From NCBI GenBank assembly GCA_902794475.1, contig CADBHR010000001.1, forward strand, positions 1 through 64,000: DNA of 64,000 nucleotides, given 5' to 3'. This stretch comes from an uncultured Methanobrevibacter sp. GTDB taxonomy: Archaea > Methanobacteriota > Methanobacteria > Methanobacteriales > Methanobacteriaceae. Position numbers and translations under genes: made by a program. Positions 1,209-56,670 of the stretch are shown one piece after another (position 1 is the stretch's first letter; every line of letters starts with the position of its first letter). Under the pieces are notes generated by a model. That model did not search any database and was not told the origin of the DNA. It was given only the letters and a program-made list of their open reading frames with translations.

Positions 1209-2192
1209 CTATTTTACTTCCCTTATTCGTTGAATGCATTGTCCGAATACTTCATCATTGTCGGCATTATATCTGTAGCTGTCAACTGTATCATGCCTTG
1301 GAATTATGCGAGGAATATTTAAATAATCCCCATATACCTTTTTAAGATAATATCCGGAATCTTTAGGGGAATTGAATTGAACTTCACTAAAACTGATCTC
1401 ATTTAATGGGAAAACTTTATCTGATTTCAAAACAAAGAATTTATAATAGTCATTTTTCCCACAGGCCCCATCAATACCTGGAATAATATAATCACCAGAG
1501 TCTAATGAAAGGTGTAACTCCTCATAATACTTTTCAAAATCATTTTCTATATTTAAGCTCTTTTTACACTTGTTATATTTTTTTGATGTTGATTTTTTGG
1601 AATACTTGGTTAAATAATCATAAGGATAAACATTCAAACAGGAAATGTCTCCGCCATTCTCATTTTTAACAAGAATTTTAATAAAAGAGTTAGGTTCTTT
1701 TTCAACTTTCAAAATGTCATCCAAATCCATTTTTTCAATTTCGCCGGAAATAATGTCTTTAAATTTATTATAATTAGCTCTCATCATTCCAATGTCAGTA
1801 TCATCATCCCATGGTACAAAACTTTCATGGCGAACGGCACCTAAAAGACTGCCGTAATCCAACCAGAACTCCAAATCATTTTCCCTGCAGATCTTGGAGA
1901 TTAGAATCAACAGCTCTTTTGATAATGTTTGAACATAACCCAAAACGTTTCGAGGTTCATTCAATTCATGGTCAACATAGACATTCTTCAACAAATAGGT
2001 AGTTGAATCCATATGGTCATTGGTTTGATTTTTAAATTCTTCAAACTCTTTTTTTAGTTGTTTGAATTCCTTTTCAATTTTAGCGACATCCTCAATATCT
2101 CCTGCAATATATTTTTCATACTGATTTTTGTAAAAATTATAGCTATTGCTTCTGCTTAAAATCATATTTTCAATTTTTTTCTTAAAAGACAT
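1209..2192 (-). CDS. LicD family phosphotransferase with N-terminal SRSNSY tag
   Basis: A LicD-type phosphotransferase of about 327 residues from the internal ATG (MSFKKKIENM). A start at 2204 adds four residues, but the paralog at 22418-23446 conserves MSFK, so I prefer 2192. Residues 8-27 carry the tag NMILSRSNSYNFYKNQYEKY, followed by a charged helix (about 36-60) that should form a coiled coil. The LicD core has WLDYGSLLGAVRH and WDDDTDIG (128-135). It is the first gene of a tagged/untagged LicD pair repeated near 22 kb. Substrate unknown; a cell-surface glycan is inferred from context. Confidence 0.85.
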   Translation of the reverse strand: MSFKKKIENMILSRSNSYNFYKNQYEKYIAGDIEDVAKIEKEFKQLKKEFEEFKNQTNDHMDSTTYLLKNVYVDHELNEPRNVLGYVQTLSKELLILISKICRENDLEFWLDYGSLLGAVRHESFVPWDDDTDIGMMRANYNKFKDIISGEIEKMDLDDILKVEKEPNSFIKILVKNENGGDISCLNVYPYDYLTKYSKKSTSKKYNKCKKSLNIENDFEKYYEELHLSLDSGDYIIPGIDGACGKNDYYKFFVLKSDKVFPLNEISFSEVQFNSPKDSGYYLKKVYGDYLNIPRIIPRHDTVDSYRYNADNDEVFGQCIQRIREVK

Positions 2193-2268
2193 TATTTTCC
2201 CCATTTAATTAACTATACCCAGGAATTATATGCTCAAATAACCTTCCAAATACAATGAAATATTTTTT

Positions 2269-4188
2269 TTAGGAGTCATTATTTTTTAAACTGATTTTTC
2301 TTCCTTCTTGTCGACCATATCTTTCATAATGCAATAAAGGATTCATCCCATGCTCCCTAACATCAGGATGACACTCATAATACTCATCAGTGCTGAAATC
2401 AGGACCCGGATTATAACCTTTGGTATAACCAATATTCAAATAATGATAAACAGAATCATCAAAACCGCTTAAATCATAATTACTCTCATACCAATCCTTA
2501 TCAAAATAAGGAGACTCTAAAATCATGTTATAATCATTTTGATGACGCCTATTAGAAAAATGAATTTTTCGCTTTTCTTTTCTTCCTCTTAACTCATAAT
2601 GAACCAAAGGATTATCCAATACCTTTTTAACATCACGATTACGGTCAAAATACTCCTGAGTGCTAAAATCAGGACCAGGATTATACCTCTTAATATATCC
2701 GACATGCAAATAATGATCAACAGAATCTACACCTTCAGCAATATCATAGGTATGTTCATACCACTCCCTATCAAAATACGGGGAATTCAAGATCAAATCA
2801 TAATCCCTTTCATCTCTCTGTTCAAGTGAAATCGGTCGATTCTCATTTCTGCCATATTTTTCATAGTGAAACAAAGGATTCATTCCATGCTTCTCTACAT
2901 CCCTATTGCTCTCAAAATACTCATTGGTACTGAAATCAGGACCTGGATTATAACCTTTGGTATAACCGATATTCAAATAATGATAAACAGAATCATCAAA
3001 ACCGCTTAAATCATAATTACTCTCATACCAATCCTTATCAAAATAAGGAGAATTCAAAATTAAATCATAATCCTCTTTATGTCGCTTATCCGAAAAATGA
3101 GTTTCTCGCTTTTCTTTTTTTCCGATTAATTCATAATGAACCAAAGGATTATCCAACACTTTCTTAACATCACGATTACAGTCAAAATACTCCTGAGTGC
3201 TGAAATCAGGACCCGGATTATACCTCTTAATATATCCGACATGCAAATAATGATCAACAGAATCTACATCATCATCAATATCATAGGTCCTATCATACCA
3301 CTCCCTATCAAAATAAGAAGAATTCAAAATCAGACCATAATCCCTTTCATTTTTCTGCTCAATAGAGATATACCGGTTTTCATTTCTGCCATATCTTTCA
3401 TAATGCAATAAAGGATTCATTCCATGCTTTTTAACATCCTTATTGCACTCATAATACTCTTCAGTGCTGAAATCAGGACTAGGATCATAATTTTTTTCAT
3501 ATCCAATTAAAAGATAATGAATCACCGAATCGGTATTGTCCTCAAAATCATAGGTATCCCTATACCACTGGTCATTAAAGTAATCGGAATTTAAAATTTT
3601 GAAATAACCATTGATTTTAGGAAAAACCCTCTGAAAATTAACATCATTTACGAAATGATAAAATTTATTTGATTTCAGCCTAAATAAATCATTTAAAATA
3701 AATTTTATTTGATTGAAAACAGGTTCATCCACAATTGGAAAAACTCTACCATAATCCCTTAATTCTTTAACACGTTCCTTTAATGTAAAAATATAGTCAT
3801 AATTCATCAAGTTTTCCAATTTATTCCAATTATCCTTAACAATTGCAATTTTTATAGCATCATCTTTTAATACAGTGGAATCAAAATCACAATCGTCACA
3901 GATAAAAATATGGTTAGAAAAATCGCTATTTTTTCTAAAAGAAAGTCTAAGCTTAAATTTCTTAATTAAAATTACAATTAGATTATCTGTTGATTTTTCA
4001 ATTGACTCATAGTCCTTTAACATTTGAGAATCAGCAAAATTATTATTAATCAAATCTTTTTCTTTTGTAAAATATGAAATATCAAATGTTTTATAGATAG
4101 TTTTAAAGTCATATTCCATTAAATCACAAGTTAACAAGTAATGCTCAATATCATTCTCATCAATATGTTTTTTTAAAGTATTTTTCAT
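2269..4188 (-). CDS. Repeat protein with five ~89-residue HYL/G..E.R modules
   Basis: This 639-residue protein has a unique N-terminal part (about 1-194) with no motif I recognise, then five tandem modules. Each module contains FDxxWYxxxYD, DSVxHYLxxGY, NPGPDFST-EY, DVKKxxxNPLxHY and GRxExR. Each therefore holds two copies of a shorter unit (HYLxxG...E.R...FD/FS..Y) that is common beside glycosyltransferases in bacterial rhamnan and capsule loci. Modules 2 and 4 resemble each other, as do 3 and 5. No GT2 or GT4 catalytic motif is visible, so a binding or scaffold role is inferred. No clear ribosome-binding site precedes the ATG. It faces the forward methyltransferase-kinase gene across a 254-base divergent spacer. 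Confidence 0.75.
   Translation of the reverse strand: MKNTLKKHIDENDIEHYLLTCDLMEYDFKTIYKTFDISYFTKEKDLINNNFADSQMLKDYESIEKSTDNLIVILIKKFKLRLSFRKNSDFSNHIFICDDCDFDSTVLKDDAIKIAIVKDNWNKLENLMNYDYIFTLKERVKELRDYGRVFPIVDEPVFNQIKFILNDLFRLKSNKFYHFVNDVNFQRVFPKINGYFKILNSDYFNDQWYRDTYDFEDNTDSVIHYLLIGYEKNYDPSPDFSTEEYYECNKDVKKHGMNPLLHYERYGRNENRYISIEQKNERDYGLILNSSYFDREWYDRTYDIDDDVDSVDHYLHVGYIKRYNPGPDFSTQEYFDCNRDVKKVLDNPLVHYELIGKKEKRETHFSDKRHKEDYDLILNSPYFDKDWYESNYDLSGFDDSVYHYLNIGYTKGYNPGPDFSTNEYFESNRDVEKHGMNPLFHYEKYGRNENRPISLEQRDERDYDLILNSPYFDREWYEHTYDIAEGVDSVDHYLHVGYIKRYNPGPDFSTQEYFDRNRDVKKVLDNPLVHYELRGRKEKRKIHFSNRRHQNDYNMILESPYFDKDWYESNYDLSGFDDSVYHYLNIGYTKGYNPGPDFSTDEYYECHPDVREHGMNPLLHYERYGRQEGRKISLKNNDS
2290..3600 (-). 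repeat. Tandem coding repeats with a 537-bp higher-order period
   Basis: Five ~268-bp coding repeats lie inside the gene. The sequence around 2465 (ACCGCTTAAATCATAATTAC) recurs at about 3002, and the one at 2604 recurs at 3141, both offset by exactly 537 bp (179 codons). The higher-order unit is thus a pair of modules, and the two pairs are nearly identical at DNA level, which suggests a recent duplication. Confidence 0.85.
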
Positions 4189-4442: not shown

Positions 4443-6251
4443 ATGGCAACTATTAATAAAAAATTTTATAATAATGAAACTGAGTACAGTGACGGTTCAA
4501 TTGAGGATGAAATACTAAATATGGTTAAAAGTACTGACGATTTGGAAGGAATTCTGATTAATGATTCACGCTGGCCTGTATTTTATCATTTATCTTATTT
4601 AAGGGAAAACTTATTAAATTGGTATCCTTTTAAAGAAGATAGCAATCTTTTAGAAATTGGTGCTGGTTGTGGAGCATTGACCGGACTGTTCTGCAATAAG
4701 GTTTCAAAAGTTACAGCCGTTGAACTAACTGATAGAAGATCACAAATAATATATAATAGGCATAAAAATTATTCAAATCTTGAAATTTTCCCAGGTAATC
4801 TCAATAATATGGAATTTGAGGAAAAATTCGATTATATCATTTTATGCGGCGTCCTCGAATATGCCACTCGATTTACACCAACAGATAAACCTCATGTTGA
4901 TTTTTTAAAAAAAATAAAGAGCATGTTGAGTGAAAATGGAGTGATTTTAGTTGCTATTGAAAATAGAATCGGATTAAAATATTTTTCAGGATCCAAAGAA
5001 GACCATGTGGGAAAAGGTTTTGTGGGAATTGATAATTATCCGAACAATGATGATGTCAAAACTTTCTCTCGATTCGAAATAGAAGAAGTTATTAAGGAAG
5101 CAGGCTTTAATAATTATAAATTCTTTTATCCATATCCTGATTATAAATTTCCAACTATTATTCACACTGACGATTTAATTGAAGAGATTCCTGTTTTGAC
5201 AAATGCTCCAAATCATGATTATCAAAAAATTAAACTATTTAATGAGGGAAACCTGAATTTAACATTATCAAAAGACAATATTTCTAAATATTTTGCTAAT
5301 TCATTTTTAGTTGAACTTAGAAACAGTAATGATACTCAACAATCAGAAACTGTTAAATATTCTAAATTAAGTGCTCGTAGAGAAAAGGAATTTAGAATTG
5401 GAACACAAATCTATCAAAAAGATGATGAAATTCTTGTATCCAAATTTCCATTGAATTCCACTTCCGAAAAACATGTTGAAAAGATGCACAATTACTCAAA
5501 AAATGATTTTGGTAAAATAAAATGTTTAAATAGTGTTTTGGAAAATAAGAATTTAGTTTATCATTATCTTGATGAATTAAATTTATCCAATATCTTAACG
5601 GATTTATTGCTTAAAGATTCAACCAAAAAACAGGCTATTGATGAATTAAAAAACATTTATGACTCTATTGAATTCAATTCTTCTAAAAAGGATAATTATC
5701 ACACCCCTGAATTTTCAAAGGTATTTGGAGATGAACAAATTGATGAAGCTATGCATTGTCATGAAATATCCAATTTAGATTTCATTTTTAATAATTTATT
5801 TTATGTAAATGATGAAATCATAGCTATTGATTATGAGTGGTGTTTTGATTTTCCAATTCCTATTGAGTACATATTCTGGAGATCGCTAAATTTTGAATAT
5901 TACCATAATGATATTTTTAAGAAACTTTTAACAATTGAAGAAATTTTTGACGATTTAAAATTAAATAAAGAATGGATTCCTACATTTAAAAAATGGGAAA
6001 ATCATTTTATGAAGTATGTAGGAGGACCAGTTCTTCCAAAACAAAAGATTGTAACTGGAGAACAAATTCTTCATGATTTAAAACATTACAAAAAATTGGC
6101 TAAAGATAAAGAAAAAGAGATAAAAAAACTAAAAAAACAGAATAAAAAACTTAAAAAAAGTAATTCAAAATTAGAAGATAAGTTAAAAATAATGGAAGAG
6201 TCAACTTCTTGGAAGATTACTTCCCCATTACGTAATGTAATGAAAAAATAA
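4443..6251 (+). CDS. WbdD-like methyltransferase-kinase with coiled coil and C-terminal SWK tag
   Basis: This is a 602-residue multidomain protein. Residues about 45-240 are a class I SAM methyltransferase with motif I LLEIGAGCGA (69-78). Residues about 320-510 look like a protein-kinase/APH fold: a candidate beta-3 lysine K334, a D446-x4-N451 catalytic loop (LDFIFNN) and IDYEW with D463 in the DFG position. A Lys-rich coiled coil (about 535-585) ends in STSWKITSPLR. This order matches E. coli WbdD, which caps O-antigen chains by phosphorylation and methylation and whose coiled coil sets chain length. A similar capping role is an inference. The forward hydrolase-like gene follows 78 bases later with the same tail. 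Confidence 0.75.
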   Translation: MATINKKFYNNETEYSDGSIEDEILNMVKSTDDLEGILINDSRWPVFYHLSYLRENLLNWYPFKEDSNLLEIGAGCGALTGLFCNKVSKVTAVELTDRRSQIIYNRHKNYSNLEIFPGNLNNMEFEEKFDYIILCGVLEYATRFTPTDKPHVDFLKKIKSMLSENGVILVAIENRIGLKYFSGSKEDHVGKGFVGIDNYPNNDDVKTFSRFEIEEVIKEAGFNNYKFFYPYPDYKFPTIIHTDDLIEEIPVLTNAPNHDYQKIKLFNEGNLNLTLSKDNISKYFANSFLVELRNSNDTQQSETVKYSKLSARREKEFRIGTQIYQKDDEILVSKFPLNSTSEKHVEKMHNYSKNDFGKIKCLNSVLENKNLVYHYLDELNLSNILTDLLLKDSTKKQAIDELKNIYDSIEFNSSKKDNYHTPEFSKVFGDEQIDEAMHCHEISNLDFIFNNLFYVNDEIIAIDYEWCFDFPIPIEYIFWRSLNFEYYHNDIFKKLLTIEEIFDDLKLNKEWIPTFKKWENHFMKYVGGPVLPKQKIVTGEQILHDLKHYKKLAKDKEKEIKKLKKQNKKLKKSNSKLEDKLKIMEESTSWKITSPLRNVMKK

Positions 6252-6329
6252 TAAGATTATTTTACTGAATGAACTAATAAAATATTTTAATCTATTAAAA
6301 ATAATTAACTATTTATATCAGTGATTTTT

Positions 6330-7442
6330 ATGACAAATAAACGATTTGAATTAACTGAAGAAATGATTTCATCTATTGATTATAGCATGAACAAACTAGT
6401 TGATAAAAATATTAAATTAAACTTTAATGAGATTTCTTCATTCGAGTTTCCTTTAGATGAACCTTTCGGATTACAGGTATCCTACAACGATACAATTTAT
6501 TGTTTAATAATTAAATTTTCATCAAAAAACAAAAATTTGATATGTACAGGCCCAGGTGCTTATGAAAGAGACATAATAAAGGATGGAGAACTACTAACAC
6601 CTCCATTTTTCAGCAGATGGAGTTGGTATAAATTTTTCAAAGAATCATACATTGCATATGCAGACCCTATGTTCTTTTATGGAGAAAAAATTAAGATTGC
6701 ATGGCTTATCGGTACTAAAGAACATTGGTTTTTACAAGATTTATCTAAAATCATTGAAGAGTTATGTAAAAATCAAGAGATAAAACACAACAACATACTA
6801 TTTTACGGATCATCTGGAGGAGGATATACCTCAGTTGTCCTAGGAACACTGATAAAAAATTCACAAGTCTTAATTAACAATTCTCAGTTATTTGTAATGA
6901 ATTATTGGGAAAGCATGGTAAATCCTGTATTTGACCTATTATACGAATCATTTGTAGGAATGACTAAAGATGAGATAATTGAAACAATCAAACATAGATT
7001 GGACGTGATAGAATTATTCAAAAAAGAAAATTACGCTCCATTTATAACATATTATGTGAATGTAGAATCTGAATGGGACATCAAACTTCATGGAATGCCG
7101 TTTTTAAAAGAAATTTACAAATTGAAGCAATTTAATGGACTTGATGTAGTTTATTATCGTGAAATTAAAAATGTTCCGCATGAACCTATGAATTCTAAAA
7201 AAACCATCAGAGTGATTAGAGAATACTGTAAGAATTATTTATATAACTCTAAAGAGGATATGAAATCAAAAGAAAATCAAAATATATACATTGAAGGCAA
7301 ATATATTCCAAAACTTCAAAAACAAAACAAAAGACTCAAAAAGAAAAATAAAAAATTGAAAAAAGAAAATAAAAAGTTATTAAATTCAACAAGCTGGAAA
7401 ATAACTTCCCCTTTAAGAAAAATCAAAAAAATATTTAAATAG
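6330..7442 (+). CDS. Alpha/beta-hydrolase-like protein with C-terminal SWK tag
   Basis: The protein has 370 residues from ATG 6330; the GTG at 6321 is itself the GTGAT ribosome-binding site, four bases before that ATG. The sequence YGSSGGGYTS (about residues 162-171) fits the G-x-S-x-G nucleophile elbow of alpha/beta hydrolases, and a His in NVPHEPMN could complete a triad. The C-terminus is a Lys-rich coiled coil (about 325-350) followed by NSTSWKITSPLRKIKK, the same tag as on the gene before it and on many glycosyltransferases here. It may be an esterase or acyl-transferring enzyme acting on the glycan; this is inferred. The exact family is not recognised. Confidence 0.6.
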   Translation: MTNKRFELTEEMISSIDYSMNKLVDKNIKLNFNEISSFEFPLDEPFGLQVSYNDTIYCLIIKFSSKNKNLICTGPGAYERDIIKDGELLTPPFFSRWSWYKFFKESYIAYADPMFFYGEKIKIAWLIGTKEHWFLQDLSKIIEELCKNQEIKHNNILFYGSSGGGYTSVVLGTLIKNSQVLINNSQLFVMNYWESMVNPVFDLLYESFVGMTKDEIIETIKHRLDVIELFKKENYAPFITYYVNVESEWDIKLHGMPFLKEIYKLKQFNGLDVVYYREIKNVPHEPMNSKKTIRVIREYCKNYLYNSKEDMKSKENQNIYIEGKYIPKLQKQNKRLKKKNKKLKKENKKLLNSTSWKITSPLRKIKKIFK

Positions 7443-10461: not shown

Positions 10462-12354
10462 TCACACATCCCACAAAGGAGTCTTGTATCCTAATTTTTC
10501 AGCCAATTCAGGTTCCCATTGATTTTTTGAAAACATCAAATCAAATTTGTCTTTGTTCTCTTTAAGTTTCTTTGTTGACTGTTGAAATTTATGATACACT
10601 TTGGCATCGGAAGTTTGATATATTCTTAATCCTAAAATATGGCGAACAAAGTTTGAAAATATCCTGTCTGAACGAAAGTGCCTGCCTAATTCAGAGTCAA
10701 GACCTAAACTTTTATCATATATTTCACGTTTAATGTAAGTGCAGAAGAATGGGGCAAAATTCAACTCCAAAATCTCTCCATCATGATACAGAGGAACGTT
10801 AATAATATTTTTATGTGTTCTGGATGGAGTCACATCACATTCATAATTGAAATTAGCGTAAGGAACATTATATTTAATTCTAGGATCGCTGTTAAATAAG
10901 ATTTCCTGAGGAACAATAAGCCCGCAATCATCAATATCATAAGCGTAAAACTGCATCGCTTCCAATGCCCCTTTTGTTAAAATAGCATCATTGTTTAAAA
11001 GCAGAATATCGGAATCATTATCCGCTATGGAAATTCCCTGTTCTACTGCATATGTGAAACCATAGTTTATATCATTTTGAATCAGCTTGATTTTATCCTG
11101 TGAAAACATGGTTTTTAGATATTCCCGAACTGCATCATTAGAATTATTATCTACAACAATTATATCTATTAAAGGAGAATTGAAGGATAAAATTGCGTCA
11201 ATGCACTCTTTAAGGTCATCCAATAATTCATAGCTAGGGATGACTATACTGACCTTTTTATCCAGTTCATATTTTAATGAGAAATCTTTATTATTATCAA
11301 TCAACTCATGAACTAATTCAATATTTTCCTCATCATCCGGACTTTTTAAATTTGTTTTTGATTGTAAAACAGGTATTGAATACATCTTATGATTTTTTGA
11401 CATGTTTAAAATGAAATGCCAATCTTCCAAAGACTGTAAAGATTCCTCAAATTGAATCTCATCCACTAAAGATTTTTTATGGGCAAACGCACTTAATGAA
11501 ATATAATTTTTATTGAACAATAATGATTTGCTGTATACACCGAATTTTATTGCTGAAACTTTATTCCAGTCAGAATCATAAATTAATTGACCTGAATATA
11601 TCACATCAGCATCAGATACTTCGAAAAATGCTCCCATCATTGTTTTTAAGTATTCCTCACACCATTCATTGCCGATATCTATATAAAAAATGTATTCCCC
11701 ATTTGCCTTATCCAGTGCCAGATTTCTGCAATAGGAGAAACCCTTTCGTTCATCATTCCTAATTATTTGAACATTGGATTGTGTGATTGAATTCAATTCG
11801 GATGCAGTCTCATCTTCACTAGCATCATCGACTATAATCAGTTCATAGTTAGTGTAAGTTTGATTGAAAACACTCTGAAGAGTATCAGAAAGTTCAGATT
11901 CATTATTAAAAACCGGAAGTATGATGGAAACCAACGGTCGATAATTTTCAACATTTCCCTCCAGATATTTTGCTAAATGATCCATAAATGCAAAGCATCG
12001 TTTATCTTCATTTGAAAAAGGATATTCAATTACTGGTGAAACGTAAAACTTTGATAGAATACCTTCAAAATCAAAAAAGAGATAATCCTTTTCATATTTA
12101 TTAAATAATCTGTCCTTGGCTTTTTTAAGTTTCTTATTACGTTTTTTTAGAGAAACCAATTTAGACTGTTTCTTCTTCAAGTCCTCTTCCAAAGAATCAA
12201 TCTTAGCCTGTTTCTTCTTCAAATCCTCTTCCAAAGAATCAATTTTAACTTGCTTTTTCTCCAAATCCTTTTCGGATTTCTTTAATTTTTCATAGCTCTC
12301 TTTATAGAACTGATAGCTATTGCTTCTCTCCAATAATTTTTCGTTAAGCCCCAT
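10462..12354 (-). CDS. Double-domain family 2 glycosyltransferase with N-terminal SNSY tag and coiled coil
   Basis: This 630-residue protein begins with the tag LLERSNSYQFYKESYEKL (7-24), followed by a coiled coil with three 14-residue repeats (KxQ-KIDSLEEDLKK, about 32-75). Two GT-A family 2 domains follow: the first with SIILPVFNNES and VDDASEDE, the second with SIVIPSYE, VDNNSND and LLNNDA. The tandem arrangement resembles rhamnosyltransferase-like enzymes in bacterial surface polysaccharide loci, so it may add two sugars in turn. It is the only glycosyltransferase here with the LicD-type N-terminal tag rather than the C-terminal SWK tag. AGGTATTTT precedes the ATG. Confidence 0.8.
   Translation of the reverse strand: MGLNEKLLERSNSYQFYKESYEKLKKSEKDLEKKQVKIDSLEEDLKKKQAKIDSLEEDLKKKQSKLVSLKKRNKKLKKAKDRLFNKYEKDYLFFDFEGILSKFYVSPVIEYPFSNEDKRCFAFMDHLAKYLEGNVENYRPLVSIILPVFNNESELSDTLQSVFNQTYTNYELIIVDDASEDETASELNSITQSNVQIIRNDERKGFSYCRNLALDKANGEYIFYIDIGNEWCEEYLKTMMGAFFEVSDADVIYSGQLIYDSDWNKVSAIKFGVYSKSLLFNKNYISLSAFAHKKSLVDEIQFEESLQSLEDWHFILNMSKNHKMYSIPVLQSKTNLKSPDDEENIELVHELIDNNKDFSLKYELDKKVSIVIPSYELLDDLKECIDAILSFNSPLIDIIVVDNNSNDAVREYLKTMFSQDKIKLIQNDINYGFTYAVEQGISIADNDSDILLLNNDAILTKGALEAMQFYAYDIDDCGLIVPQEILFNSDPRIKYNVPYANFNYECDVTPSRTHKNIINVPLYHDGEILELNFAPFFCTYIKREIYDKSLGLDSELGRHFRSDRIFSNFVRHILGLRIYQTSDAKVYHKFQQSTKKLKENKDKFDLMFSKNQWEPELAEKLGYKTPLWDV
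12166..12291 (-). repeat. Three 42-bp tandem repeats encoding two-heptad coiled-coil units
   Basis: The coding sequence repeats with a 42-bp step (12166 and 12208 begin matching copies), giving three 14-residue units KKQxKIDSLEEDLK. The third copy is diverged. Each unit is exactly two heptads, so gain or loss of a copy keeps the coiled-coil register. Confidence 0.8.
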
Positions 12355-14983: not shown

Positions 14984-16132
14984 CTATTTTAACTTTCTTT
15001 TGGCCGAACGTAATGATTTTGTTATTTTCCAACTATTTGAATTTAAGACCTGATTATTTTTCTCCTTGAGTTTCTTATTCTTCTCTTTTAGTTTTTTATT
15101 CTTATCCTTGAGCACCTTATTTTTCTCTTTGAGGTCATTAATATCGAATTTGCTTACCTGAATTATTATCTCCTTAGGATCATCCATTTGCTCAAGTAAA
15201 GTTAAAATCAGCTTGTTTCTTTCATCAATTGTTTCGCAAAAATCGTCGAAGAAGTCTTCCTGCCTCAATTCATCAATATTCTTTTTAAATTCAGTTAAGA
15301 ATACATCTCTTAATTCTGGCTTTATTCTGAAAAGTCTAAAATAGGCAATGCGAACCCGGCGATTATACAATTCCTCTTTAAATTCCTCAAAAACACCATG
15401 TTTTCTAAAACATTGCCAAATTAATTTATAAATTTCAAATGTATCTAAAAAACGCATATCTCCCGCTTTTGTTGATGATGCAGAATGCCATCTTCTAATA
15501 AACAGGTGCTGGCGCAGGAAAGTGATTCTCTTGGCGCTGAAAAGCACATCCCAGAAAAATACGTTATCGTCAAAAATCAGACCCTCAGGAAACTTTGCGC
15601 CGCAATTTTCAATAAATTCCCTCCTATACATCTTACTCCAGGGAGTAACCGCTATTTTAAATAAGAATTTCTTAACATCTTTCCAGCTAAAGACACTATC
15701 TCCCACAACATCGGCCAGTTTATTCATGCTGTAGTTTTCTTTTTCTATGTACTCATTCGTATCCATGTAGTAATTGATGGCCTGAAAGAGAACAAAATCA
15801 ACATCCTTTTCATCACCAACCCTTACAGTGTCTTCAAATGCATTTAGCTTTAAAATATCATCCGAATCCATTAAAAAAAGATATTCTCCTTTTGCAAGTT
15901 CCATACCTCTATTTGTTGCCACGGCATGTCCTGCATTTTCTTGAGATATGACAGTGAATCTGCTGTCCTTTTTAGCATATTCATTTAGAATTTCCAAAGA
16001 GTTATCGGTCGAACCGTCATTCACACAAATTATTTCGATATCATCTAAAGTCTGATTAACTATACTGTCCAAACATTCTTCCAAATAATCTTCAACATTG
16101 TACACCGGAACAACAACTGACACCTTAACCAT
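14984..16132 (-). CDS. Family 2 glycosyltransferase, class A, with coiled coil and SWK tag
   Basis: A 382-residue GT2 enzyme with SVVVPVYNVEDY, VNDGSTDNS and LMDSDD. It shares GLIFDDNVFFWDVLFSAKRI and RRWHSAS with the class A genes at 12446 and 39409. Near the C-terminus, repeated KEKNKKL heptads (about 335-362) precede NSNSWKITKSLRS, so the coiled coil is especially regular. GGTG lies nine bases before the ATG. Only 18 bases separate it from the next start, so it is probably in one transcript with the genes at 13805 to 19978. Confidence 0.85.
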   Translation of the reverse strand: MVKVSVVVPVYNVEDYLEECLDSIVNQTLDDIEIICVNDGSTDNSLEILNEYAKKDSRFTVISQENAGHAVATNRGMELAKGEYLFLMDSDDILKLNAFEDTVRVGDEKDVDFVLFQAINYYMDTNEYIEKENYSMNKLADVVGDSVFSWKDVKKFLFKIAVTPWSKMYRREFIENCGAKFPEGLIFDDNVFFWDVLFSAKRITFLRQHLFIRRWHSASSTKAGDMRFLDTFEIYKLIWQCFRKHGVFEEFKEELYNRRVRIAYFRLFRIKPELRDVFLTEFKKNIDELRQEDFFDDFCETIDERNKLILTLLEQMDDPKEIIIQVSKFDINDLKEKNKVLKDKNKKLKEKNKKLKEKNNQVLNSNSWKITKSLRSAKRKLK

Positions 16133-17464: not shown

Positions 17465-18691
17465 TCATTTGAAAACTCTTTTGATGCCCCTTAATGGCTT
17501 TGTCACTTTCCAGCTTGAAGAATTGATTACTGAATCATACTCTTTCTTGTAGCTTTTACCTTTTTTCTTTTTCTTAAGCTTTTCATTCTTTTCCTTGAGT
17601 TTTTCATTCTTCTTTTTGAGTTTATTGATTTCCTTCTGCTGTGATTCGATAGCATTAATAAAGAATTCATGTTCCATACTCAAATGCTCGAATTCCTTTG
17701 AAGGAACTTCAATTACATCCCCATCTTTCAAGGTGTCAAATGGAGATAAGAAAGAATAATATCTCCTAAGATCAGGAATGCTGAAATTTGACCTTACTGT
17801 AAACGGTTGCAATCTTTCCATCATCTCTACAATATAAGGTCTTATTTCAGGCAGATTCTCTTCATATCCATCTCTTGCTTGAATGTTATTCATATAAATG
17901 TTAACTCTCCAATAGACACTTCTTAAAACCTCTTCGGTTTTGCATTCCGGATACTTATCAAGAACATCCAAATTATCAAGCATTCGTCTGATAGGTAATG
18001 TAAAATCTGTTAATTTGTTTGAAGATGAATCCGGATTGGATTCCCTATAATAATAGTAACCTTCATCAGTGTAACGTATTGTTTTTGCCAAACATAGAGT
18101 CTCATGGAAAAACGGATTATCTACCCATCCTCCGCCGGGAGCTTCCATAAACTTAATGTCATTGATTGAAAGGAAATCCCTTTTGTAAATTGCAGACCAT
18201 ATGGAAGGATGCCCTGTTAATACATATCCGCAATCCTTAAGATTAAATGGTTTGTCATCAGGAATTTTCTGTTTGAATCTGTTTCTGTCCTTATAAATCT
18301 CTCCGGTATCCTCATTAACATAAATAAAGCTGGATTTGATTAAATCATATTCTCCATTATTGGACAGCTTATATAATTCCTCAAACATTTCAGGAGCAAT
18401 ATAATCATCAGTTTCAACAATTCCAATGTATTCTCCCTTAGCTTCAGCCATTCCCATATTCATTTGATGGCCGTAACTCTTCTCATCTGAGTGGAGCAGA
18501 GTAATCTTTGGATTCTTATCAGCATATTCCTTTAAAATATCCAGGGTTCCATCAGTTGACCCCGCATCAACAATAATTATCTCAATATCCTCTAAAGTTT
18601 GATTAACAACACTGTCCATACACTCTACAATGTAATCTTTAACATTCAGTGTAGGCATGATAATTGAAACTTTTGGTTTATCTAATGACAT
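17465..18691 (-). CDS. Family 2 glycosyltransferase, class B, with coiled coil and SWK tag
   Basis: A 408-residue paralog of the class B gene at 13805. Motifs are SIIMPTLNVKDY, VDAGSTDGT and VETDDY; class marks are KSYGHQMNMGM, GHPSIWSAIYK, GGGWVDNPFFHE and RESNPDSSSN. The C-terminus has Lys/Glu heptads (about 345-380) and NSSSWKVTKPLRG. GGAGAT sits just before the ATG and overlaps the TAA of the gene upstream (stop 18692-18694), so expression of the two is closely coupled. Confidence 0.85.
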   Translation of the reverse strand: MSLDKPKVSIIMPTLNVKDYIVECMDSVVNQTLEDIEIIIVDAGSTDGTLDILKEYADKNPKITLLHSDEKSYGHQMNMGMAEAKGEYIGIVETDDYIAPEMFEELYKLSNNGEYDLIKSSFIYVNEDTGEIYKDRNRFKQKIPDDKPFNLKDCGYVLTGHPSIWSAIYKRDFLSINDIKFMEAPGGGWVDNPFFHETLCLAKTIRYTDEGYYYYRESNPDSSSNKLTDFTLPIRRMLDNLDVLDKYPECKTEEVLRSVYWRVNIYMNNIQARDGYEENLPEIRPYIVEMMERLQPFTVRSNFSIPDLRRYYSFLSPFDTLKDGDVIEVPSKEFEHLSMEHEFFINAIESQQKEINKLKKKNEKLKEKNEKLKKKKKGKSYKKEYDSVINSSSWKVTKPLRGIKRVFK

Positions 18692-19978
18692 TTATCTCCC
18701 TCTCAACTTTCTTTTTAAGACTCTGATTGGAGAAGTAATCTTCCAACTTAATGAATTAGCATACATCTTTGTCAATTTCTTTTGTTGTTTTAAATCTTTT
18801 TTAAGATCTGAATTTTTATTCTTTAATTTTCTATTTTTCTTTTTTAATTTAAGATTTTTATCAACTAACTTTTCATATTTCATTCGCAAATCAAGATAAT
18901 CGGTTTCCAGATACCTGCGAGTGAAATCATCAATATTATCGGCAGTTTGGAGAATGAATGATTTTCTCATCAAATCCTTGGATATCTTTTTATTTTCAAG
19001 CAAATTTAGTTTTAAAACCTTTTCTCTTGTTTCATTGAGCAATTTTTCAGTTGGACATTCATACACATGATGAATCCATTGGGAAGCAAGGAATACATTA
19101 TAATCATCCAGATAATCCTCAAAGTAATGTCCATCCTCGCCGAATATGTCCATCACTATCTCATAAATGTTCCAGTCAATCGCATTATCCTTATACCTGA
19201 GATATAAGAATAATTCTTTTTTATATTCATAAGCCAGGTTGTCGAAACCTGCTTCATAAAATACGTCAAAAACCCCTTTGAATACCTTAAAGAAGTTTGT
19301 GATAAAATCATAATCGGAAAGTTTTTTATTGAATCCTCCGCCCACCTGATGGTTATATCCGTATAACCAGACCGGAATTCCATAAATCCTATCCACATTC
19401 ACAAGAGCCCTGGCTAAAAATAGCGTATCCACACCTCTTTTATATGGTGGAAAGCGAATATTATTTTCATTTAAAAATTCTCTTTTAAAGATATTTTTAT
19501 AAAAAGCAAAAGGAATCCCATATTGACTTGGAGAAAAGCTGGTTTCTTTATCACAGAATTTGTAAAGTTCACGCTTATAATGATGGGAATCTACAATCCT
19601 GTAATCATCTTCCACAAATTTAAGATTCCCTGCAACCATATCCGCATCGTTTTTAACTGCATATTTATACATCTTTTCCAATGCATCCTCATCGACATAA
19701 ATATCGTCAGCATCCAAAAAGGCAATGTATTCTCCGGTGGCCTCTTCAATACATTTATTAAGGGCAGGTCCTGCACCTTTATTTTCCTGTGAAAACACCT
19801 TGATAAAATCATATTTTGAAGCGAATTCCTTTAATATGTTATAGGAATTATCAACTGAACCGTCATTAACACAAACAATTTCAATATCCTTTAATGTTTG
19901 ATTGAAAATGCTTTCCATTGCATGTTCGATATAATCTTCCAAATTATAAACAGGCATTAAAACTGAAACTTTAACCAT
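18692..19978 (-). CDS. Family 2 glycosyltransferase, class C, with coiled coil and SWK tag
   Basis: A 428-residue GT2 enzyme with SVLMPVYNLEDY, VNDGSVDNS and FLDADD. It pairs with 16180 through YGIPFAFYKNIF and LYGYNHQVGGGFN, but unlike that gene it carries a C-terminal coiled coil (about 365-405) and NSLSWKITSPIRV. It is the first gene of the reverse-strand GT2 run and faces a LicD gene across a 332-base divergent spacer. GGAGAT lies before the ATG. Confidence 0.85.
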   Translation of the reverse strand: MVKVSVLMPVYNLEDYIEHAMESIFNQTLKDIEIVCVNDGSVDNSYNILKEFASKYDFIKVFSQENKGAGPALNKCIEEATGEYIAFLDADDIYVDEDALEKMYKYAVKNDADMVAGNLKFVEDDYRIVDSHHYKRELYKFCDKETSFSPSQYGIPFAFYKNIFKREFLNENNIRFPPYKRGVDTLFLARALVNVDRIYGIPVWLYGYNHQVGGGFNKKLSDYDFITNFFKVFKGVFDVFYEAGFDNLAYEYKKELFLYLRYKDNAIDWNIYEIVMDIFGEDGHYFEDYLDDYNVFLASQWIHHVYECPTEKLLNETREKVLKLNLLENKKISKDLMRKSFILQTADNIDDFTRRYLETDYLDLRMKYEKLVDKNLKLKKKNRKLKNKNSDLKKDLKQQKKLTKMYANSLSWKITSPIRVLKRKLRGR

Positions 19979-20310
19979 TAAATCTCCTCAAATCCTTATG
20001 CTATAAATTTATTATATTTATATTTTTTAATTCATATTATATAAAATTATGTTTATTTTATTAAAAAGATATTTTATTTTTCGTATTATTCAAAAAAACA
20101 AATACAGAATATAACAATTAATATTTTAAAGAAATTTAGTTAATAAATCCTGAAAAAAAATGAAAAAAAATTTTTATAGAACTTTTCTTTTTAAATGAAT
20201 ATTTTTTCAAAAGTTTTTTAAATATTAAATTTAAAATATAGTAATGATTAAAGATTTTAATTTAAACTAATAATTAAAATTACAAATAATATATAATACT
20301 GGTGAATATA
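19979..20310. promoter_or_regulatory. Divergent AT-rich promoter region between the GT2 run and a LicD gene
   Basis: This 332-base stretch has no coding potential and is mostly A and T, with long A/T runs (for example 20153-20172). TATA-like TTTTAAATATT (about 20215-20225) and TTTAAAATATAG (about 20230-20241) could serve the forward LicD gene. The reverse promoter is likely in 19990-20060. No clear operator or RNA element was found. Confidence 0.4.
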
Positions 20311-21342
20311 ATGGGTATTTTTAACAAATTAAAGCAATCAGTCCTAAATCAAAGTGATACCTATAGGCTTTATGAATGTGAATATAAAAAAAATAAAAAA
20401 CTTAAAAAAGACTTGAAAAAGACAAAAAAACGTGTAAAAAAATTAGAGAAAGAATTTAAAAAGTACAAGAAAGCCAATGATCTGATTATTCGTTCCTATA
20501 ATCAGCAGTTAAACACAATATTTTTATATACCGATTTTGAAGCTCAAAACTTTTTGAAATATAATCACTTGTTAAATATAGAATTGCTAAATTTTGCAGT
20601 AAACATATGTGAAAAATACGGTTTACAATATTGGCTAGAATATGGGGCTTTGCTGGGCGCTGTTCGTCATAAAGGATTCATTCCATGGGATGACGACATT
20701 GATATCGGTATGATGAGGAAAGACTATGATAAATTCTTAGAAGTATTGCCTCAAGAACTAAAAAACACAAAATTAGATGAAAGAATTAAAGTTACAATTA
20801 ATATTTCTCATGTAAAACCAATCCCATGTATTCAACTGTTATATCAAAGAAATGTTCCAGGATTACTTGCAGGTCTTGATATCTCTGCATATGATTTTAT
20901 AGATGATATTACTGACTGTAACAAAGAAACCTATTGCGAAATACAGAAAGTAGTTAGAACAAAAAACAAAAACGGCATACCAATATATGATGCAGTGAAA
21001 GACTATATTGAAAGATTCAATATCAGTTATGAAAAACAAGATTTTATAATTCCAGGTGTCGACGGATTTGTCGAAGCATTCAAGGCATATAAATTTTTTA
21101 TTGCTACATATGATCAGATATTTCCATTACAAGAAGTTAAATTTGAAGACCAAACTTATACTGCACCTAGAGATGTGAGATTTTATCTGGAAAAACAATA
21201 TGGAGATTATCTTGACATACCTCCAAAAATCCATACTCATCACTTCAGATTTAAAGTTTTAAGAGAAATGGATGATGGACTCGATATTTATAAAGAACAA
21301 GTTGAAATAGTTAGAAAAGCTAATGAAACATACAAGAAATGA
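20311..21342 (+). CDS. LicD family phosphotransferase with N-terminal tag and coiled coil
   Basis: A LicD protein of 343 residues from ATG 20311. The GTG at 20302 belongs to the ribosome-binding site GGTGAA (20301-20306), five bases or so ahead of this ATG. The N-terminus carries VLNQSDTYRLYECEYKKNK, a variant of the SRSNSY tag, then a Lys-rich coiled coil (about 27-56). The core has YWLEYGALLGAVRHKG and WDDDIDIG (126-133). It is most like the LicD at 27136. It ends convergently with the LicD at 21443, with a hairpin between them. Confidence 0.85.
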   Translation: MGIFNKLKQSVLNQSDTYRLYECEYKKNKKLKKDLKKTKKRVKKLEKEFKKYKKANDLIIRSYNQQLNTIFLYTDFEAQNFLKYNHLLNIELLNFAVNICEKYGLQYWLEYGALLGAVRHKGFIPWDDDIDIGMMRKDYDKFLEVLPQELKNTKLDERIKVTINISHVKPIPCIQLLYQRNVPGLLAGLDISAYDFIDDITDCNKETYCEIQKVVRTKNKNGIPIYDAVKDYIERFNISYEKQDFIIPGVDGFVEAFKAYKFFIATYDQIFPLQEVKFEDQTYTAPRDVRFYLEKQYGDYLDIPPKIHTHHFRFKVLREMDDGLDIYKEQVEIVRKANETYKK

Positions 21343-22417: not shown

Positions 22418-23446
22418 TTAATCATTATTTACTTCTTTTAATCTGTCAATACATTCACCAAATAACCTAGGGCTATCAAAATTATATCTAAATTTATCAA
22501 CATTTACAGGAATGGAAATAATTTTTGGAAGGTTATAATAATCATTATAAAGTTTTTTTAGATAATGCTTATCGGTATTAGGTGCATAAAACTCATTATC
22601 ACCAAACCTGACTTTTTTCAATGGGAATACCTTTGATGTTGTAAAAATAAAGAAATCATCATCATATTTACTTCTATCTATACCAGGAATAATAAAATCA
22701 TCCTGTTCATAAGACAAGTTTAAAGATTCATAATAAACATCCAAGCTAGATTTTAAGTCAGAATTATCCAAATCCTTGAAAAAATTGTTTTTGCATTTTT
22801 TATATTCCTTTTTTAAAACCTTTTTAGTATACTCGCCTATATAATCATAGACAAAAACGTTTAAAACAGACAAACTTGATTCAACACAATCAGGGTGATT
22901 AATAGATATCTTCAATGACCCTTTAATATGTTCGCTGTTCTGTTCTTTATTTATATAATCAACACAAACAATATCAGTCAATCCTTTATCTGATATTTCA
23001 TCATTGAATTTATCAACAAACTTGAAATAATCAGACCTCATCATTGCTATATCAATTTCATCATCCCATGGAATGAAATTTTCATGACGGACAGCACCTA
23101 AAAGAGTACCAAAGTCCAACCACCATGTAATCTCATTTTTACTGCATACTTCTGATACGAACAACAGCAATTCGGATGATAAATCCTGAATATTCTTTAA
23201 AACATTAATCGGTTCATTCAATTGATAATCAAAAAAAGCGGTACCGAGCAGATATGATATGGATTCCATCTGATTATCTGTAACACGTTTAAAAGTGTTC
23301 AATTCCTTTTTCATCTCAGTTAAACGTGCCTCGATTTCAGGATTTTCATTTTTCGGCAAACTATTTTTTTCATATTGCTCTTTGTAGAATTTATAGCTAT
23401 TGCTTCTACTCAATATCATATTTTCAAGCTTTTCTTTAAAACTCAT
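22418..23446 (-). CDS. LicD family phosphotransferase with N-terminal SRSNSY tag
   Basis: About 342 residues from ATG 23446 (MSFKEKLENM), preceded by AGGTAAC; ATG 23461 would add five residues. The tag ILSRSNSYKFYKEQYEK (11-27) nearly matches that of the LicD at 1209, but the following helix is shorter. The LicD core has WWLDFGTLLGAVRHEN and WDDEIDIA (127-134), where the third acidic position is Glu rather than Asp and the usual Gly is Ala. It heads the second LicD pair. Confidence 0.85.
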   Translation of the reverse strand: MSFKEKLENMILSRSNSYKFYKEQYEKNSLPKNENPEIEARLTEMKKELNTFKRVTDNQMESISYLLGTAFFDYQLNEPINVLKNIQDLSSELLLFVSEVCSKNEITWWLDFGTLLGAVRHENFIPWDDEIDIAMMRSDYFKFVDKFNDEISDKGLTDIVCVDYINKEQNSEHIKGSLKISINHPDCVESSLSVLNVFVYDYIGEYTKKVLKKEYKKCKNNFFKDLDNSDLKSSLDVYYESLNLSYEQDDFIIPGIDRSKYDDDFFIFTTSKVFPLKKVRFGDNEFYAPNTDKHYLKKLYNDYYNLPKIISIPVNVDKFRYNFDSPRLFGECIDRLKEVNND

Positions 23447-23500
23447 AATGTTACCTGACATGTTTGATTTTCAAAAAAAGGAATATAACTAAAGATTAGC

Positions 23501-25607: not shown

Positions 25608-26891
25608 ATGGGAAAATATAAAGATTTGCAGAAATATATTTCCGAATATTTTAAGGATGAATCCAAAAAAGATTTGGAACGAGGATTATTTTACTCCAAT
25701 CCAGAATTATTCTATGAAATAGCCAAATATAGAAAATATGGCATGCCAAAGAAGTATAGGCAAGCTATCAAAAAATATGACGTGAATAAAGAGTTATTTT
25801 TCTTTGAAAGTAACTTGGCAAGGCAATACACCGGCAATCCTCGCTACATTTATGAAAAGATGATTGAAAAATATCCTGATTTTACCTATGTCTGGGCATA
25901 CAATGGTGATGCAAGCAAAATTCCGGGAAATCCAATAATTGTTGAGAGAAAATCAGACGAATATTACAAATATTTAGCCCAATCAGCTTTTCTAATCAAT
26001 AACACAATATTTCCCAACTGGTTTCACAGAAAAGAATCATTTTTCCTGCAAACATGGCATGGTACACCGTATAAGAAAATGCATTGGGATATTGAGCTTA
26101 AAAGCATGCACGCCAAAACCAAAGCTAATTTCTATGTAAAATCCCAAGGATGGAACGCCCTATTGAGTCCAAACCATTTTTCAAGCGAGAAATTTCAATC
26201 AGGATTCAAGTATTATGGGGAAATTCTAGAGTTCGGATATCCTGCAAATGATATCTTCTACAACAAAAAGGAATACTCCGAAATGAGGGAAAAAATCAGA
26301 AAGCAACTGAACATATCTCCCGACAGCATTGTGTATTTATACGCTCCAACTTGGAGAGATGGAGGATATATGGGAAATTCAATGTTCATATTCAATTTGC
26401 TATTTGATCCTAGGGAATTCTTAAATCATGCTCCTGAAAATTCAGTATTATTGATTAGAAGCCACCATATGAGCGATTCTCAAAAGGTGTTAAGTGAATT
26501 CGAAGACAGCATCATTGATGTGAGCAGCTGGGATGATGCAGTTGAGCTGATGTGTGCTGCAGATGTGTTAATCACAGATTATTCATCAATTGTTTTTGAT
26601 TGGTATTGCAGTAAAAAACCTGTGATTTATTTTGTTCCTGATTTAGATAAATATGTTAATGAATTGAGAGGAGCATACTTTGATTTAGAAGAAATAAATT
26701 GCGGAGCAATATGCAAAAGTGAAGAAGAGTTATATAATAATCTGGACGTTCTTGACGCTCCATTTTACAAGGATTTTTATGATAAATTCTGTTCACTTCA
26801 CAATGGAAATTCTACACAAAAGACAATAGATTACATGCTAAATAAAGACCATGAATCATTAAAAAGTAAGATTAAAAGAAGATTCAAATGA
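25608..26891 (+). CDS. CDP-glycerol glycerophosphotransferase family protein (TagB/TagF-like)
   Basis: A 427-residue enzyme of the family that transfers glycerol-phosphate from CDP-glycerol to a growing chain in bacterial teichoic-acid synthesis. Family motifs are LQTWHGTPYKKMHWD (about 145-159), LSPNHFSSEKF, LYAPTWRDGG and ITDYSSIVFDWY (about 326-337). A close paralog is at 42701. It uses GGTG seven or so bases upstream. The acceptor is not known; a glycan of the surrounding locus is inferred. The presence of such proteins in an archaeon points to a phosphodiester-linked wall polymer. Confidence 0.88.
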   Translation: MGKYKDLQKYISEYFKDESKKDLERGLFYSNPELFYEIAKYRKYGMPKKYRQAIKKYDVNKELFFFESNLARQYTGNPRYIYEKMIEKYPDFTYVWAYNGDASKIPGNPIIVERKSDEYYKYLAQSAFLINNTIFPNWFHRKESFFLQTWHGTPYKKMHWDIELKSMHAKTKANFYVKSQGWNALLSPNHFSSEKFQSGFKYYGEILEFGYPANDIFYNKKEYSEMREKIRKQLNISPDSIVYLYAPTWRDGGYMGNSMFIFNLLFDPREFLNHAPENSVLLIRSHHMSDSQKVLSEFEDSIIDVSSWDDAVELMCAADVLITDYSSIVFDWYCSKKPVIYFVPDLDKYVNELRGAYFDLEEINCGAICKSEEELYNNLDVLDAPFYKDFYDKFCSLHNGNSTQKTIDYMLNKDHESLKSKIKRRFK

Positions 26892-27135: not shown

Positions 27136-28158
27136 ATGTGTGCATTTAACAGAATAAAAAAATTCTTTTTAAATCGAAGCGACATGTATAGATTTTATGA
27201 ATCAGAATATCATAAAAATAACAAAAAAGTCGATAAAAAACTTAAAAAGAACGAAAAGAAAATTAAAAAATTAGAAAAAGATTTTAAAAAGTATAAAAAA
27301 AGTAATGATAAAATAATAACCGCATACAACTCTCTTTTCAATAGCTTATTTCTTTATAATGAAATTAAACCAAAAAGATTAGTACAATTATCACATGACT
27401 TAACATTGGAAATGCTTGATTTTATTGATAATATCTGTAAAAAGCATGATTTACAATGGTGGATGTATGCTGGAACTTTATTAGGCGCAATTAGGCATGA
27501 AGGTTATATCCCATGGGACGATGATATAGACATATGTATGTTGCGTGAAGACTATGAAAAATTCTTTAAGATTTTTCCTGAAGAAGTAGCCGAATGCGGT
27601 TTAACTAAAAGGGACATAACCATTACAAACACTAAATATAATAGAAAAAAAGACCGTTATTTACCATTCAGCAAAGTTGAATTTTGGGTATGGCCACATA
27701 ATTATTCATTTATTGATATCTTTCCAGTAGATTATGTCACTGATTTAGTGCCGGATTATAAATCCCTTCATAAAAAAGAGTGCAAGGATCTTATTGAAAA
27801 ATTAAAGTCCGGAACACCTAGAGAAGAAGCTTTAAAAGAATCATTTGAAAAATTACATGTTTCAAAAGATAAAACCGACCTTCTTATGTGTGGTGTTGAA
27901 GACACAACTTTTGCGATTGCAAGTAATTATGATACCATTTTTCCTTTAAAAACACTTAAATTTGAAGATAGAATGTACCCTTGCCCTAATGATTATATAA
28001 CCTATATTATAGGATTATATGGTGAAAATTATGTGAAAATTCCTAAAAATGCACATCCTCATGGTTTTTATGGATATTTATCTTCTCATGACAATGTTTA
28101 TGAAAATCTTGAAATATGTTTAGAAAAGTTGAAAAAAGCTAATGAAAGGTACAAATAA
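27136..28158 (+). CDS. LicD family phosphotransferase with N-terminal tag and coiled coil
   Basis: A 340-residue LicD protein. The N-terminus has FFLNRSDMYRFYESEYHKN (10-28), then a strongly Lys-rich coiled coil (about 29-57). The core shows WWMYAGTLLGAIRHEG and WDDDIDIC (127-134), with PHNYSFIDIFPVDY further on. It most resembles the LicD at 20311. A 244-base AT-rich spacer separates it from the TagB-like gene, so it probably has its own promoter. It ends convergently with the GT2 at 28201. Confidence 0.85.
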   Translation: MCAFNRIKKFFLNRSDMYRFYESEYHKNNKKVDKKLKKNEKKIKKLEKDFKKYKKSNDKIITAYNSLFNSLFLYNEIKPKRLVQLSHDLTLEMLDFIDNICKKHDLQWWMYAGTLLGAIRHEGYIPWDDDIDICMLREDYEKFFKIFPEEVAECGLTKRDITITNTKYNRKKDRYLPFSKVEFWVWPHNYSFIDIFPVDYVTDLVPDYKSLHKKECKDLIEKLKSGTPREEALKESFEKLHVSKDKTDLLMCGVEDTTFAIASNYDTIFPLKTLKFEDRMYPCPNDYITYIIGLYGENYVKIPKNAHPHGFYGYLSSHDNVYENLEICLEKLKKANERYK

Positions 28159-40524: not shown

Positions 40525-40538
40525 TGACAACAACTCAA

Positions 40539-53784: not shown

Positions 53785-54219
53785 TTATTTCAGATCAGAT
53801 AAAGATGCTCCTCTTTCCTGATATAACAATTCTCTGATTCTTGTTGATGAAATACCCTTGGTGTATGGGAAATAGATTATTTTGATATTGTTTTTTTCAA
53901 ATTCCTTTTCATAATTTTTCCATTTTTCGGTTCCATACCAGTCATCACCAACAAATAAATAGGAAGCGCCTAGTTTTTTACACATTTCCAACTTATCCAT
54001 ATTTTCCTGTGGAACAACAGCATCAACGTATCTGCATGCCCTAACCATCTCAATACGTTCATCATATGGTATGAATGCCTTTTTATTTTTATATGAAACC
54101 AATTCATCAACAGTAACGCCAACAATTAACTTGTCGCACATTCCTTTTGCATTTTTTAATAAATTTAAATGTCCAATATGAAATAAATCATATACTCCAG
54201 CGGTATATCCGATAATCAT
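53785..54219 (-). CDS. Glycerol-3-phosphate cytidylyltransferase-like protein (TagD family)
   Basis: A 144-residue nucleotidyltransferase. TAGVYDLFHIGHLNLL holds the HxGH site (about 14-17) and TKGISSTRIRELL is the second signature. TagD makes CDP-glycerol from glycerol phosphate and CTP, which the five TagB/TagF-like proteins here would use. Archaeal RibL (FAD synthetase) is related, and CTP:phosphoalcohol enzymes feeding LicD are similar, so the substrate is not certain; the genomic setting favours a CDP-alditol. Whether it uses sn-glycerol-1- or 3-phosphate cannot be seen. Confidence 0.8.
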   Translation of the reverse strand: MIIGYTAGVYDLFHIGHLNLLKNAKGMCDKLIVGVTVDELVSYKNKKAFIPYDERIEMVRACRYVDAVVPQENMDKLEMCKKLGASYLFVGDDWYGTEKWKNYEKEFEKNNIKIIYFPYTKGISSTRIRELLYQERGASLSDLK

Positions 54220-54278
54220 ATTATTCCTCGTTAAATTAAATCAATTATATATTATTTAGTTACTCATTAGTTTTATAG

Positions 54279-56651: not shown

Positions 56652-56670
56652 TTTATCACAAAAAATAGTA

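What the first reader, a model, noticed from the sequence alone, without database searches (positions are those of the whole stretch)
4443..6251. Archaeal protein with the domain order of the O-antigen chain terminator WbdD
Methyltransferase, kinase-like domain with K334, D446, N451 and D463 in catalytic positions, then a coiled coil and tail. In E. coli O8/O9a WbdD the same order caps the chain and its coiled coil acts as a length ruler while recruiting the polymerase. If true here, the coiled coil and SWK tail could play the same ruler and recruiting role for a methanogen polymer.
Basis: partly seen in the sequence, partly recalled or inferred. Interest (0 to 1): 0.62.

Follow-up and report, generated by a model that had tools for sequence, protein, structure and literature searches.

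The report
Archaeal methyltransferase-kinase, likely glycan capper
A gut methanogen carries an intact two-enzyme protein (methyltransferase plus kinase) of a recently characterised bacterial family that stops sugar-chain growth by adding a methyl-phosphate cap, which suggests that some archaea cap their surface sugars the same way, although no cap has been shown and its coiled-coil tail is shared with several neighbouring enzymes.

Summary
The 602-aa ORF at 4443-6251 is real. It has a class I methyltransferase, a confidently predicted kinase fold, a 48-residue helix and an SWK tail. K334, N451, D463 and E465 are invariant in 28 relatives; D446 is kept in 26 of 28. The nearest known relative is not WbdD: BLASTP E is 2.2, and profile comparison reaches only the methyltransferase. 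It is the Klebsiella pneumoniae O7 terminator ORF6^O7-N (PMC11231755), whose kinase domain is also APH-like and was unannotated. All six of its SAM residues are conserved here, and its catalytic Asp appears to match D446. Bacterial relatives usually sit with Wzm-Wzt exporter genes, often with rhamnose genes. The archaeal sequences form one clade. Most likely this is a methyl-phosphate glycan-capping enzyme gained from bacteria. Chain-length ruling is unproven: the window copy has no exporter beside it, its helix is about 7 nm against about 20 nm in WbdD, and the same helix-plus-SWK tail sits on at least five neighbouring proteins. That junction motif also occurs in WbdD at the end of its coiled coil, so the tail looks like a shared membrane or assembly module.

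The parts
4443..6251 (+). Gene for the 602-aa methyltransferase-kinase-coiled coil protein (P0001)
   Evidence: ORF and translation; full-length relatives
4485..5147 (+). Class I SAM-dependent methyltransferase domain, about residues 15-235, with Y15, Y48, G73, G75, E94 and Y140 equivalent to the SAM residues of ORF6^O7
   Evidence: Pfam, model, residue mapping
5340..6032 (+). APH-like kinase domain, about residues 300-530, with K334 (5442-5444), D446 (5778-5780), N451 (5793-5795) and D463 (5829-5831)
   Evidence: Conservation, kinase-only model and fold search
6057..6200 (+). Long helix 539-586, probable coiled coil
   Evidence: Model; Lys/Leu-rich sequence
6201..6248 (+). SWK tail, residues 587-602 (STSWKITSPLRNVMKK), basic and amphipathic
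   Evidence: Motif census, profile score
6321..7442 (+). Next gene on the same strand, 70 bases downstream, GTG start: weakly hydrolase-like protein with the same coiled coil and SWK tail; possible operon partner
   Evidence: 48% homologue near a Wzm-Wzt-like pair in a sister species, L089
12446..13624 (-). GT2 glycosyltransferase with the same coiled coil and SWK tail
14984..16132 (-). GT2-like protein with the same coiled coil and SWK tail
17465..18691 (-). GT2-like protein with the same coiled coil and SWK tail
18692..19978 (-). GT2-like protein with the same coiled coil and SWK tail

Best explanation
The gene encodes a bifunctional glycan kinase and phosphate methyltransferase of the ORF6^O7-N family. 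[quoted passage not shown] The helix and basic SWK tail hold the enzyme at the membrane next to glycosyltransferases that carry the same tail. Shown: domains, predicted fold, conserved active-site residues, homology to the bacterial family over both domains. Inferred: catalysis, glycan acceptor, terminal position of the cap, membrane attachment. The sugar is unknown; rhamnose is suggested by the family's gene company. Ruling of chain length by the coiled coil is possible but not supported for this copy.
For: Conserved kinase residues and APH-like fold, as in ORF6^O7, where D441A kills the kinase (PMC11231755). All six ORF6^O7 SAM residues conserved and D446 aligned with the catalytic Asp of the Pseudomonas homologue. 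Profile match to Citrobacter P0003 over both domains, E 1.2e-46, 478 columns. Gammaproteobacterial homologues directly after wzm-wzt; 16 of 27 bacterial loci have Wzm and Wzt. Archaeal clade groups with exporter-linked members in the methyltransferase tree (99/99). Four archaeal relatives are followed by RgpF, which is in only 2 of 61 relatives and both times beside this gene.
Against: No activity data for any archaeal or clostridial member. The ORF6^O7 sequence itself was not available. The window copy has no Wzm-Wzt, Rml or RgpF neighbours. K334 is not kept in the two gammaproteobacterial homologues, and D463 is Glu in one. The ORF6^O7 CBM-like domain is absent. The locus looks teichoic-acid-like (TagF, LicD), so the acceptor may differ.
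Confidence: 0.58

Rival explanations
1. It is a decorating enzyme: it adds methyl-phosphate to internal or side-chain sugars of a teichoic-acid-like glycan made by the TagF, LicD and GT2 genes around it, with no role in ending the chain.
For: The window is rich in LicD, TagF-like and GT2 genes, and no exporter or RgpF adjoins this copy. Coiled-coil-less bacterial relatives lie away from Wzm-Wzt.
Against: The one characterised family member modifies the non-reducing end, and close bacterial relatives are exporter-linked.
Confidence: 0.25
2. One reading: it works like WbdD in full, the coiled coil being a length ruler and the SWK tail recruiting the polymerase.
For: Same domain order. WbdD carries the same SxSW(K/R)xT junction at the end of its coiled coil. 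Bacterial members with a coiled coil are mostly exporter-linked.
Against: The tail is on at least five other window proteins, so it is not specific to a terminator. The helix is about 7 nm against about 20 nm. No detectable kinase homology to WbdD. The coiled-coil-less proteins are largely one clade, so the correlation may be a single event.
Confidence: 0.1
3. The kinase domain acts on a small molecule or lipid, or is no longer active, and the link to glycans is only by neighbourhood.
For: APH-like folds also phosphorylate choline, homoserine and antibiotics. No sequence model recognises a kinase here.
Against: The catalytic Asp, Asn and metal Asp are conserved across archaea and bacteria; ORF6^O7 is active without a recognisable kinase signature; the bacterial relatives lie in glycan loci.
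Confidence: 0.07

Closest known systems
ORF6^O7 N-terminal methyltransferase-kinase terminator, Klebsiella pneumoniae O7 (PMC11231755)
   Same: Methyltransferase, then an APH-like kinase that sequence searches do not recognise, then a coiled coil; six SAM residues conserved and catalytic Asp apparently conserved.
   Different: Archaeal; no CBM-like domain and no fused GT2 modules; no Wzm-Wzt neighbours; short helix ending in an SWK tail. ORF6^O7 itself was not aligned directly.
WbdD, E. coli O9a (PMC3482155)
   Same: Same domain order; D-x4-N spacing of the catalytic loop; SxSW(K/R)xT junction at the end of the coiled coil.
   Different: No detectable homology in the kinase; DYEW in place of DFG; much shorter coiled coil; lacks the roughly 100 residues that follow the junction in WbdD.
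Uncharacterised 'class I SAM-dependent methyltransferase' of Citrobacter braakii plasmid pF217-3 (P0003)
   Same: Homologous over both domains (E 1.2e-46); coiled coil at the C-terminus.
   Different: Directly after wzm-wzt with rmlBACD; no SWK motif at the end.

Membership tests
ORF6^O7-N type methyltransferase-kinase terminator | Methyltransferase with SAM residues Y28, Y66, G91, G93, E112, Y158 | tested here: met
   Equivalent Y15, Y48, G73, G75, E94, Y140, through the Pseudomonas homologue with identical numbering
ORF6^O7-N type methyltransferase-kinase terminator | APH-like kinase domain with catalytic Asp (D441) | tested here: met
   APH-like fold; D446 aligns with D443 of the Pseudomonas homologue. 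The D443-D441 equivalence is inferred, two residues apart
ORF6^O7-N type methyltransferase-kinase terminator | Sequence homology over both domains | tested here: met
   Profile comparison with Citrobacter P0003, 478 columns, E 1.2e-46; ORF6^O7 itself was not available
ORF6^O7-N type methyltransferase-kinase terminator | Coiled coil after the kinase | tested here: met
   Helix 539-586 in the model; oligomeric state not tested
ORF6^O7-N type methyltransferase-kinase terminator | Linked Wzm-Wzt ABC exporter | tested here: not met
   None near the window copy; a Wzm-Wzt-like pair lies on contig C59. Met in 16 of 27 bacterial relatives
ORF6^O7-N type methyltransferase-kinase terminator | Phosphorylates and methylates the non-reducing end of a glycan | not testable with these tools
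   Needs an enzyme assay and glycan analysis
WbdD (E. coli O9a) | Methyltransferase, kinase, coiled coil in this order | tested here: met
WbdD (E. coli O9a) | Sequence homology in both catalytic domains | tested here: not met
   BLASTP E 2.2; profile alignment of 71 methyltransferase columns only
WbdD (E. coli O9a) | Coiled coil holding the catalytic domains about 20 nm from the membrane | tested here: not met
   48-residue helix, about 7 nm against about 20 nm (PMC5082667)
WbdD (E. coli O9a) | C-terminal membrane helix and WbdA recruitment region | tested here: inconclusive
   Junction motif shared; the roughly 100 residues that follow it in WbdD are missing here
WbdD (E. coli O9a) | H132, H133 and R203 at the phosphate-methylating site | not tested
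   No reliable alignment in this part of the methyltransferase

The most novel reading that the evidence does not exclude
The SWK tail with its coiled coil is a common docking and membrane module that gathers glycosyltransferases, accessory enzymes and a methyl-phosphate terminator into one complex in archaea and bacteria, WbdD included; the methanogen thus makes an end-capped, length-controlled glycan with machinery taken from gut bacteria.
Probability: 0.2. Interest if true: 0.75.

Novelty: new member of a known kind. Interest (0 to 1): 0.47.

Why it matters
If the activity holds, methyl-phosphate end-capping of glycans, characterised in Gram-negative O antigens, would extend to an archaeon and to many gut Clostridia; no description of such members was found in the open library. 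The shared SWK tail gives a concrete, mutable candidate for what brings terminators and glycosyltransferases together at the membrane, a point that bears on WbdD-type systems too.

Tried and rejected
Pfam and PDB sequence searches do not see the kinase domain, alone or as a profile, and NCBIfam does not see it in the whole protein; weak hits to poxvirus N1, 14-3-3 and FTA2 in one member are treated as chance. The whole-protein fold search was swamped by methyltransferases, hence the kinase-only model. Viral contigs gave nothing. Descent from WbdD by sequence was not supported. 'Wzt' hits in L041 and at window 34642 are other ABC ATPases. Two separate transfers into archaea were considered because the methyltransferase is closer in identity to Campylobacterales L039 than to the other archaeal group; both trees put the archaeal sequences together. 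RmlC is in nearly all relatives, so rhamnose supply says nothing specific. No E. coli genome holds DNA similar to the Citrobacter gene.

Full report
Observation. Pfam and NCBIfam give only a class I methyltransferase. Relatives were gathered from the same genus and beyond and from one genome per species (33 loci, mostly Lachnospiraceae and other Clostridia, also Campylobacterales, Desulfosporosinus and six Methanobacteriaceae). In 28 kinase sequences K334, N451, D463 and E465 are invariant; D446 is kept in 26 of 28. AlphaFold2 gives pLDDT 91 for the whole protein and about 95 in the kinase core. Foldseek on the kinase alone returns APH(3')-Ia, MphH, LicA, homoserine kinase, PRPK, Rio1 and Syk. 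It is therefore very probably a kinase fold with its catalytic residues.

Not a WbdD by any descent that could be detected. WbdD from E. coli HS (O9) was fetched. BLASTP finds nothing (E 2.2), and profile comparison aligns 71 methyltransferase columns only. WbdD is not among the 50 structural matches shown for the kinase model; a rank further down cannot be excluded.

The better relative. K. pneumoniae O7 ORF6^O7-N phosphorylates and then methylates a terminal rhamnose; its kinase domain was unannotated, closest in fold to an aminoglycoside-type kinase, and inactive as D441A (PMC11231755). A tblastn search of plasmids found Pseudomonas asturiensis and Citrobacter braakii homologues, both directly after an ABC permease and ATPase pair (wzm-wzt), the latter with rmlBACD. 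The Pseudomonas protein has Y28, Y66, G91, G93, E112 and Y158 at precisely the published ORF6^O7 positions. These map to Y15, Y48, G73, G75, E94 and Y140 here, and D446 maps to its D443. Profile comparison with the Citrobacter protein spans both domains (E 1.2e-46). K334 is not kept in these two, and D463 is Glu in Citrobacter. ORF6^O7 itself was not in the collections, so this step is strong but indirect.

Gene company. Of 27 bacterial loci, 16 have Wzm and Wzt with the methyltransferase-kinase, often with Rml genes. Bacterial members with a coiled coil and enough flank nearly all have the exporter (L054 is an exception), and the versions without a coiled coil do not. But most of the latter form a single clade, so this may be one event. 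The archaeal sequences form one group in two trees (100/99). In the methyltransferase tree they group with exporter-linked members (99/99). I read this as one transfer from bacteria into Methanobacteriaceae, followed by a split into two archaeal groups. In the second group (L031, L032/L036, L035, L051) the gene is followed by RgpF, a rhamnan-synthesis family. RgpF is in only 2 of 61 relatives, and both times beside this gene. The window copy and L034 lack RgpF, Rml and exporter neighbours. A Wzm-Wzt-like pair is on contig C59 of the same genome, and no Wzt_C domain was found in this genome.

Coiled coil and tail. Helix 539-586 is about 7 nm, while WbdD holds its catalytic domains about 20 nm from the membrane (PMC5082667). 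The motif SxSW[KR]x[TS]x[PSG] occurs in 20 of 458 ORFs in the loci examined, in each case after a coiled-coil-like stretch and never in shuffled sequence. Loci were chosen for relation to this gene or its neighbours, so the count is not a genome-wide rate. Five further window proteins match it (the 6321-7442 product and four GT2-like proteins), and two more match loosely. The only match in 49 kb of E. coli HS is WbdD, at the end of its coiled coil (3 of 2000 shuffles of WbdD score as high on a profile of the window tails). The tail is therefore a shared module, plausibly a membrane helix and docking tag. It does not single out this protein as a ruler, but it does connect WbdD with these proteins.

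Mechanism. Shown: domains, predicted fold, conserved residues, homology. Inferred: phosphate then methyl on the outer sugar of a lipid-linked glycan, ending its growth, with the tail at the membrane beside tailed glycosyltransferases. My weights are 0.58 for the capping enzyme, 0.25 for decoration, 0.1 for a full WbdD-like ruler and 0.07 for a non-glycan or inactive kinase.

Novelty. No description of an archaeal member was found in the open library, which lacks most subscription papers. It is a new member, in another domain of life, of a recently defined kind.

Noticed in passing
window 1209-2204, 10462-12354, 20302-21342, 22418-23461, 27136-28158, 48448-49431: LicD proteins and one GT2 begin with a related stretch (such as SRSNSYNFYKNQYEK) followed by a coiled-coil-like segment: a possible N-terminal counterpart of the C-terminal SWK module.
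   Followed up: partly
window 38002-39366, 39409-40551: Two more proteins end in loose versions of the SWK tail (SSSTWKISRSIKK, SSKSWKVAKIFRK).
   Followed up: partly
window 2269-4188: A 639-aa protein is built largely of repeats of the type YFDxxWYxxxYD...HYLxxGYxxxYNPGPDFST; similar sequence opens a GT2 protein at L032 6373-7884. No clear Pfam match.
   Followed up: no
window 25608-26891, 40539-44008, 49441-51462, 53785-56690: Several TagF-like proteins and what looks like a TagD-like cytidylyltransferase (53785-54219) suggest a teichoic-acid-like polymer in a methanogen.
   Followed up: no
L052 (G063:C58:2955-4765): Methyltransferase and kinase are two separate adjacent genes here; L050, L065, L040 and L039 also read as split, some perhaps through frameshifts.
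   Followed up: partly
L048 8983-10671, L058 4807-6615, L064 7935-9653, L066 5685-9860: The SAM-binding motif of the methyltransferase is degenerate while the kinase residues stay intact: possible kinase-only members.
   Followed up: no
L037 437-2608: A clostridial relative close to the archaeal group has an extra segment of roughly 100 residues between kinase and coiled coil, perhaps like the CBM-like domain of ORF6^O7.
   Followed up: no
L042, L053, L054, L056, L059, L066: Long fusions: in several the methyltransferase-kinase is joined to glycosyltransferase-like sequence, in L066 to a cytidylyltransferase-like domain.
   Followed up: no
L089 5414-6574 and 9213-11486: A homologue (48%) of the window's 6321-7442 product, with its own SWK tail, lies 2.6 kb from a Wzm-Wzt-like pair in a sister species.
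   Followed up: partly
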